Below are positions 27,730-28,750 of a DNA stretch of 59,539 bases, piece after piece. Source of the DNA: Candidatus Pullilachnospira stercoravium. GTDB taxonomy: Bacteria; Bacillota; Clostridia; Lachnospirales; Lachnospiraceae. The stretch lies in the NCBI GenBank assembly GCA_018713585.1, contig DVON01000043.1:1-59539 (forward strand). The letters run 5' to 3'. The notes below the pieces were generated by a model. The model ran no database searches. It was given only the letters and a program-made list of their open reading frames with translations, and was not told the DNA's origin. Position 1 is the first letter of the stretch. Each line of letters starts with the position of its first letter. Position numbers and translations under genes: made by a program.

Positions 27730-27828
27730 AACAAGACAGCCGGAAGGTGACTACGCCTCACCCACCCCGGCGAAAGAATTGTTATTAAATAATAGCCGTT
27801 CACTTTCTGAGGGTTGGACGGCTATTTT
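27730..27828 (+). ncRNA. candidate ~100-nt antisense RNA, type I antitoxin-like
   Basis: Transcription from the promoter at 27695-27723 would run about 100 bases to a terminator hairpin (AATAGCCGT / ACGGCTATT, 27790-27826, then TTTTC). The segment GGAAGGTGACTACGCCTCA and the terminator resemble the antisense RNAs I associate with holin-like type I toxin loci of Firmicutes. The opposite strand carries the tail of a possible toxin reading frame ending inside the same hairpin, giving tail-to-tail overlap as in txpA/ratA. It is annotated from sequence signals and recollection of this locus type, not from a covariance model. Confidence 0.5.
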
Positions 27829-27881
27829 CTATGGTCATTTTTAGAGTAATTCAGTATCGCAATGAGATACCACCCCTTTCC
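27822..27881 (-). pseudogene. decayed small hydrophobic-toxin reading frame
   Basis: On the minus strand a Shine-Dalgarno-like GGAAAGGGGTGG (27881-27870) is followed within 7 bases by a short frame ending in LNYSKNDHRK and TAG, then the hairpin. That resembles the basic tail of holin-like type I toxins, but the hydrophobic helix and an ATG/GTG/TTG start are missing. An internal deletion is the simplest explanation. Farther along, GGCAGCCGGAGGACGTGCTC (minus strand, about 27924-27905) partly repeats the sequence at 27737-27760 in inverted orientation, which supports a decayed duplicated locus. Confidence 0.35.
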
Positions 27882-28044
27882 AACAAGACTCAGAATGGGT
27901 GGGAGCACGTCCTCCGGCTGCCCTGGTAAATAAATTGTTTAATCCAATATGGCACTACTGATAAAATTAAAATAATTATTATGTTTACATTCCAGTTTGG
28001 GACTATGCTTGAATTATACTAGTTCCATTGGATAAACTTGCGGG

Positions 28045-28082
28045 CGCAGGCTGCGCAAAACGCAGCCTGTGTGCATATTTTT
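28045..28082 (+). terminator. isolated terminator-like hairpin
   Basis: CGCAGGCTGCG (28045-28055) pairs with CGCAGCCTGTG (28061-28071) around CAAAA, followed by a T-rich tail at 28078-28082. No gene is visible immediately before it. It sits at the left edge of the 52-bp tandem repeat. Confidence 0.55.
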
Positions 28083-28107
28083 GTGATAGTGAACAGGAAG
28101 ACCGAAC

Positions 28108-28505
28108 TGTTACTAAAAAAGCGGCCAAACCGGAGAAAGTCCTGAAAAAAGATGCGATCACACTGATAAAAAGCAGCTAAACCGAAGAAAGTTCCGGAAA
28201 AAAGATGCGATCACACTGATAAAAAGCAGCTAAATCAGAGGAAGCCCCGAAAAAAGATGCTATCAGACCGGGGAGAAGCAGCTAAATCAGAGGAAGCTCC
28301 GAAAAAAGATGCTATCAGACCGGGGAAAAGCAGCTAAATCAAAGGAAGCTCCGAAAAAAGATGCTATCAGACCGGGGAAAAGCAGCTAAATCAAAGAAAA
28401 TCCCGAAAAAAGATGCCATCAGGCTGGGAAAAAGCAGCTAAATCAGAGAAAGTCCTGAAAAAAGATGCCATCAGGCTGGGAAAAAGCAGCTAAATCAGGG
28501 AAAAG
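28108..28505. repeat. 52-bp tandem repeat array, about 7.5 copies
   Basis: The landmark GATGC recurs at 28151, 28204, 28256, 28308, 28360, 28412 and 28464, that is every 52 bases (53 for the first step). Each unit contains AAAAAAGATGC, then a variable ATCA-type segment, then AAGCAGCTAAA and GAAAGTCC-like bases; a partial copy precedes the first. Units differ in blocks: early copies read CACACTGAT, middle ones CAGACCGGGG, late ones CAGGCTGGG. This is the pattern of stepwise expansion. The period is not a multiple of three and every unit carries TAA on the plus strand and stops on the minus strand, so it is not coding. There are no spacers, so it is not a CRISPR array. Confidence 0.9.
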
Positions 28506-28593
28506 TTCTTCAAAAATCGTTCCGGATCAACCCTCAAGAATTCTGCGAGGGGTAAACTGTTACGAAAAATACAGGAAATTGAGAAGTTTCCCC

Positions 28594-28652: not shown

Positions 28653-28750
28653 CTCTTATTCAGAGTGATGGAGATACATAGGATCTGTGAAGTCACGGCA
28701 ACCCCGGAAACGGAAGGTGCCTACCTGAGCGAGCAATCGAACAATAAGGG
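28653..28750 (+). promoter_or_regulatory. SAM-I (S-box) riboswitch aptamer
   Basis: P1 is formed by CTTATT (28655-28660) and AATAAG (28743-28748). The conserved core is present: CAGAGTGATGGAG, GTGAAGTCACGGCAACC, the P3 hairpin, AAGGTGCCTACCTGAGCGAG and ATCGAACAATAAG. The ligand S-adenosylmethionine is the product of the downstream metK enzyme, so this is feedback control. A terminator follows at 28766-28797. Confidence 0.95.

What the first reader, a model, noticed from the sequence alone, without database searches (positions are those of the whole stretch)
28108..28505. Non-coding 52-bp tandem repeat between a decayed toxin locus and the metK riboswitch
Seven full units with near-exact 52-base spacing and gradual block-wise change from left to right indicate expansion by slippage or unequal crossing-over. 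Stops occur in every unit on both strands, so this is not coding. The period (about five helical turns) and the strong purine bias of one strand could suit a protein-binding or chromosome-structuring array; this is speculative.
Basis: partly seen in the sequence, partly recalled or inferred. Interest (0 to 1): 0.55.

Follow-up and report, generated by a model that had tools for sequence, protein, structure and literature searches.

The report
Tandem-repeat core of a mobile element
The 52-base repeats upstream of metK are most likely the expandable middle of a small gene-less mobile element scattered between genes in this bacterium and its sister species, built like the BOX elements of pneumococcus, rather than a chromosome-organising array.

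Summary
The array is real: period 52, 7.4 copies, 28116-28503; score 480, against at most 56 in 20 shuffled windows. It is one of 13 places with unit matches in its genome and sits inside a larger element. Nine of 14 assessable loci have the right end of a small inverted-repeat element (MITE) just before the units; four share a trailer ending in the same terminal repeat. Eleven solo copies and two array-bearing copies are flanked by 8-bp target duplications. Of five sites compared with the sister species, three lack the array there, metK among them, and two share it. So I read it as a BOX-like composite MITE with a variable number of 52-bp units, probably parasitic. The units have no supported RNA fold, but 24 of 52 columns are invariant across 10 array consensuses, more than uniform placement gives, so a binding function is not excluded. 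Nothing supports a chromosome-structuring role. Three of 397 family genomes matched, one mainly through a probably mis-binned contig. No transposase with matching ends was found.

The parts
28036..28113 (+). Remnant (right part) of the MITE-like end module; its left part is missing here
   Evidence: 28036-28119 is 89% identical to positions 115-199 of the 199-nt module of G000:C23
28044..28072 (+). Terminator-like hairpin inside the end module (12-pair stem, T-rich tail)
   Evidence: consensus scan only
28097..28113 (+). Right terminal repeat of the end module, followed by TAAAAA
   Evidence: 2 edits from the consensus probe
28121..28172 (+). 52-bp unit 1
28173..28225 (+). unit 2 (53 bp)
28226..28277 (+). 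unit 3
28278..28329 (+). unit 4
28330..28381 (+). unit 5
28382..28433 (+). unit 6
28434..28485 (+). unit 7
28486..28507 (+). partial unit 8
   Evidence: matches model positions 1-22 of 52
28498..28563 (+). Trailer module, ending in a second right terminal repeat; it overlaps the end of partial unit 8
   Evidence: trailer core with 0-2 edits at 4 loci (window, G000:C22, G000:C46, G239:C76), 8 edits at G001:C69
28564..28571 (+). Presumed right copy of the target duplication; the left copy appears lost with the left end
   Evidence: inference; not testable at this site
28653..28750 (+). SAM riboswitch of metK (neighbour, not part of the element)
   Evidence: Rfam RF00162, 64.4 bits
27822..27864 (-). 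Remnant of a Hol_Tox-like small toxin ORF (neighbour)
   Evidence: about 50 bp present in G001 are missing here; the G001 ORF matches PF16935, E 1.2e-5

Best explanation
The array is the variable middle module of a composite, gene-less insertion element (a BOX-like MITE) of the Candidatus Pullilachnospira lineage. One end is a strongly folded MITE of about 195 bp with GT(A/T)ACAGTTC..GAACTGTTAC termini that also occurs on its own. The other end is a short trailer carrying the same terminus. Between them lie 1 to about 8 copies of the 52-bp unit. Insertion duplicates 8 bp of target (shown for 11 solo and 2 array-bearing copies); a transposase acting in trans is inferred and not identified. Units multiply or are lost inside the element by slippage or unequal crossing-over (inferred from the block pattern and a copy-number difference). 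At metK the element landed upstream of the riboswitch and has since lost its left end; the sister species has about 21 bp more flank there. It is most likely parasitic and tolerated because it lies between genes, with possible side effects on neighbours through its terminator-like hairpin or by changing the DNA upstream of metK (inferred, untested).
For: Dispersed: 44 full or partial unit matches on 13 contigs of the own genome. Of the 14 assessable loci among the 15 given, nine have the MITE right end (2-6 edits) directly or within about one unit before the first full unit, and four have the trailer (0-2 edits). Target duplications: 13 elements (11 solo, 2 with arrays) match at 7.15 of 8 flank bases on average, against 2.23 for mismatched pairings, of which 1 of 156 reaches 6. 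Sister species: no array at metK, the larger flanking blocks being 95% identical, none at G000:C22 or G000:C54; arrays at the places of G000:C2 and G000:C8 (by shared flanks). The tRNA-Pro copy on contig G239:C76 also has no array at its counterpart in G001. Window and C76 elements share 54 leader bases at 98%, 60 trailer bases at 95% and unit 1 at 94%, while no other pair of units exceeds 88%, as expected if the element moves whole and its inside turns over. A solo MITE folds at z -6.79. No confident gene overlaps any of the 16 array stretches examined (heuristic gene calls).
Against: The window copy has no testable left end or duplication. Only two array-bearing elements gave a duplication (7 of 8 and 6 of 8); a third, G000:C23, matches at only about 4 of 8 by eye. 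The three sites without the array in G001 are not clean empty sites: about 21 bp differ at metK (and 57 bases near the junction are only 84% identical), 65 bp of other sequence lie at the C22 site and about 158 bp at the C54 site. Five of 14 assessable loci (G000:C222, C8 with G001:C20, C153, G001:C12, G239:C29) show no MITE end before the units. No transposase with matching ends was found: the one IS66-type transposase of the genome shows no such terminus in the stretch held. Conservation inside the unit is uneven, which pure junk would not predict.
Confidence: 0.8

Rival explanations
1. The units are binding sites for a DNA- or RNA-binding protein (host regulator, nucleoid protein or transposase), so the array works as a portable regulatory or structural array.
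For: 24 of 52 columns invariant across 10 array consensuses against a mean of 12.9 under uniform placement (maximum 21 in 5000 permutations); longest invariant run 7, P 0.002. Unit length about five helical turns.
Against: Found in 3 of 397 family genomes; missing in the sister species at three of five compared sites. Solo MITEs without units also have 8-bp duplications, so units are not needed for insertion. About 9 of 13 arrays point at the next gene, no significant bias. The permutation ignores mutation bias and shared descent, and left out the divergent C8/C20 array.
Confidence: 0.15
2. The array is an RNA element: transcribed units form tandem hairpins that act on read-through transcripts.
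For: RNAalifold proposes a weak 5-pair hairpin joining the two conserved blocks; those five pairs are kept in 96.9% of cells; a divergent array in G239:C29 has near-perfect hairpin units, z -2.27.
Against: The window array does not fold clearly better than shuffles (z -0.50 and -1.44). The named hairpin shows no covariation beyond shuffles (78.7% of cells paired against 78.2%; 6 cells with both sides changed against 13.2 in shuffles).
Confidence: 0.08
3. An independent intergenic minisatellite that happens to lie next to MITE ends.
For: Five of 14 assessable loci have units without a MITE end before them.
Against: The junction of terminal repeat, A-rich linker and unit recurs at nine loci, the same trailer at four, and at two loci duplications flank the whole composite.
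Confidence: 0.1
4. Assembly artefact.
For: Draft of 293 contigs; arrays on C2, C234 and C292 reach contig ends.
Against: The units differ from one another, the array is internal with about 28 and 31 kb on either side, and related arrays occur in a separate assembly (G001) at two corresponding places.
Confidence: 0.03

Closest known systems
BOX elements of Streptococcus pneumoniae and S. suis (PMC3049150: abstract, Background, one Results section and found passages seen)
   Same: Composite repeat with end modules around a variable number of tandem middle units (boxA-boxB(n)-boxC); terminal inverted repeats and target duplications; elements with more boxB vary more in length between strains; almost absent from most other streptococci; other end modules in S. 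suis.
   Different: Different organism; here one end module also occurs as a solo MITE with an 8-bp duplication; these units show no supported RNA fold. Sequence homology to the box modules was not tested.
MITEs in general (as described in the Background of PMC3049150)
   Same: Short, gene-less, terminal inverted repeats, strong folding, target duplications.
   Different: Carries an expandable tandem array between two right-hand termini; by eye the end module is not AT-rich.
Clostridiales-1 RNA, Rfam RF01699 (one table line of PMC2864571 seen)
   Same: A core stretch of the end module matches DNA of another family member (G028) that lies inside a Clostridiales-1 hit.
   Different: The end module of this genus does not itself match that family at E 0.5 (L072, L201), and the window copy lacks that core.

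Membership tests
BOX-like composite element (kind, not sequence family) | end modules around a variable number of tandem middle units | tested here: met
   MITE end at 9 of 14 assessable loci, trailer at 4; 1 to 8 unit matches per locus
BOX-like composite element (kind, not sequence family) | terminal repeats and target duplication around the whole composite | tested here: met
   met at G000:C22 (7/8) and G000:C46 (6/8); about 4/8 by eye at G000:C23; not testable at the window copy or where an end is missing
BOX sequence family of streptococci | sequence homology to boxA, boxB, boxC | not tested
   no BOX sequence was compared
MITE | short, gene-less, terminal inverted repeats, target duplication | tested here: met
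   11 solo copies with 6-8 of 8 matching flank bases
MITE | strongly base-paired | tested here: met
   one solo copy, G000:C50, z -6.79
IS66-mobilised element | IS66 transposase with matching termini in the genome (GTAA ends and 8-bp duplications of IS66 are recalled from memory) | tested here: inconclusive
   one PF03050 protein in G000, none in G001 or G239; no matching terminus in the stretch held, whose left end seems cut by the contig; the genome is incomplete
Structured RNA | conserved fold with compensatory changes in the unit | tested here: not met
   no Rfam match over the array at gathering score
CRISPR array | conserved repeats separated by unique spacers | tested here: not met
   units are similar over their whole length

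The most novel reading that the evidence does not exclude
The 52-bp unit, with its two invariant blocks, is a specific binding site, and the composite MITE spreads it as a portable array whose copy number tunes neighbouring promoters such as that of metK.
Probability: 0.1. Interest if true: 0.65.

Novelty: new variant of a known kind. Interest (0 to 1): 0.42.

Why it matters
It explains an apparently isolated intergenic minisatellite as part of a mobile element, and suggests that BOX-type modular elements exist outside the streptococci. Such arrays reach contig ends in this draft and could serve as strain-typing loci. The link of the end module's core to Rfam Clostridiales-1 RNA raises the question whether some hits of that unexplained RNA family are mobile repeats.

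Tried and rejected
Coding function: rejected, stops on both strands of every unit and a period not divisible by three. Conserved RNA structure of the unit: not supported. Phage or plasmid passenger: no match in the phage or plasmid collections at E 1e-5; 36 stretches of viral contigs with one pattern match each, none in tandem. Spread to a second genus: weakened, because contig G239:C76 is 90% identical to G001 and 94% to G000 over most of its length (one 630-base part 82% to G000), and 97% to G001 around the tRNA gene, while metK of G239 is 79% identical to the window; it is probably mis-binned. The other G239 array (C29) is divergent and its homology uncertain. Orientation toward the next gene: 9 of 13, one-sided binomial about 0.13, worked out by hand; G001:C12 counted as opposed because of small ORFs seen only; G000:C292 (contig end) and G239:C29 left out. 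In the family pattern search the control reading matched once, in one of 397 genomes. Family-wide model search used stricter filters and scored 14 candidates per genome, so weak copies may be missed; one search scored only 13 of 62 (G000) and 13 of 24 (G001) candidates, so solo copies are undercounted. The two lists of array places in G000 share 12 contigs; C16 and C236 are each in one list only, are weak, and were not given. Literature: searches showed no report of this element in their listings; most subscription papers are not in that library.

Rows dropped before the duplication count: G000 C17 and C24, G001 C79, C61, C22 and C70 (no usable pair of ends), G001 C4 (offset register), composite G000:C23 (about 4 of 8), and composites lacking an end (window, C54, C274, C292, C2/C69, C76). 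The 8-mers were read by eye from the outputs. The 48 units leave out units of odd length, degenerate ones and those cut at contig ends.

Full report
Observation. The tandem repeat is present as described: period 52, 7.4 copies, 28116-28503, far beyond 20 shuffled windows. By similarity the units form blocks 1-2, 3-5 and 6-7; each unit has stops on both strands and the + strand is 69% purine.

It is a dispersed family. A search of the own genome with the array gave 13 places. A sequence model of 48 units gave 44 full or partial unit matches on 13 contigs of the own genome, 12 in the sister species G001 (three contigs) and 12 in G239 at E 0.01 or better. The two G000 lists share 12 contigs. In the family, 3 of 397 genomes matched (strict filters). 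In G239, 7 of the 12 matches lie on contig C76, which is 90% identical to G001 and 94% to G000 over most of its length, against 79% for metK of G239; I take C76 as mis-binned from this lineage. Four lie on G239:C29, a divergent array with near-perfect hairpin units, and one weak match is on C18.

It is part of a larger element. Fifteen loci were examined (17 sequences, two pairs being the same place in two species); C234 is cut by its contig end, leaving 14. Nine of the 14 (window, G000:C22, C54, C46, C274, C292, C23, C2 with G001:C69, and C76) carry the right end of a MITE-like module, with 2-6 edits, directly or within about one unit before the first full unit. After the last unit, the window, C22, C46 and C76 carry a common trailer (0-2 edits) with a second copy of that terminus. 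Solo copies of the module without units occur in both species. One folds strongly, z -6.79. Eleven solo copies and two array-bearing elements repeat 8 bp in their flanks: 7.15 of 8 on average, against 2.23 for mismatched pairs, one of 156 reaching 6. A third array-bearing element, G000:C23, does not (about 4 of 8).

It comes and goes. Five G000 loci were compared with G001. At metK the larger flanking blocks are 95% identical and there is no element. G000:C22 and C54 have no array at the corresponding place. None of the three is a clean empty site: about 21, 65 and 158 bp of other sequence lie at the junction in G001. G000:C2 and C8 have an array at the same place in G001, with 8 against 5 unit matches at the latter. 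The tRNA-Pro copy on C76 has no array at its counterpart in G001. The window and C76 elements are 98% identical over 54 leader bases, 95% over 60 trailer bases and 94% in unit 1, while no other pair of their units exceeds 88%. So elements seem to move whole while their insides turn over.

The units themselves. No RNA fold is supported. Conservation is uneven: 24 of 52 columns are invariant among 10 array consensuses, against 12.9 expected and at most 21 in 5000 permutations, clustered in two blocks. This may be constraint, or shared descent with uneven mutation; the test does not separate them and left out the divergent C8/C20 array. No confident gene overlaps the 16 array stretches examined.

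Mechanism. Shown: terminal repeats, 8-bp duplications for solo and two composite copies, presence and absence between sister species, block-wise similarity. Inferred: a transposase acting in trans, slippage or unequal crossing-over, parasitic status, and any effect on metK. The hairpin at 28044-28072 is a consensus match only; the TTGACA that I read by eye just downstream of the element was not listed as a promoter by the scan.

Comparison. The layout is that of BOX elements (PMC3049150: abstract, Background, one Results section and found passages seen). Sequence homology was not tested, so I call it BOX-like and not a BOX element. The core of the end module also occurs in a sequence of the same family that Rfam calls Clostridiales-1 RNA.

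Noticed in passing
window 27822-27864 (-); L203:855-956 (-): A Hol_Tox-like small toxin ORF (PF16935, E 1.2e-5) is intact in the sister species and has lost about 50 bp in the window.
   Followed up: partly
L083:1378-1597 (G028): The core of the end module lies within a Clostridiales-1 RNA hit (RF01699, E 3.3e-20); short matches to the core recur in G026, G028 and G081, so hits of this RNA family may overlap with mobile repeats.
   Followed up: partly
G239:C29:10590-10786 (L239): A divergent array of about 52-bp period whose units are near-perfect hairpins, z -2.27; relation to the window family uncertain.
   Followed up: partly
G239:C76 (L200): Contig of a MAG in another genus that is 90-97% identical to G001, probably mis-binned.
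   Followed up: yes
L242:5009, L243:8535, L246:7615, L251:8791: A second dispersed repeat with a TTTATGGCCATACGGCC-like core seems to give ORFs that begin with or contain MAIRPE-like residues.
   Followed up: no
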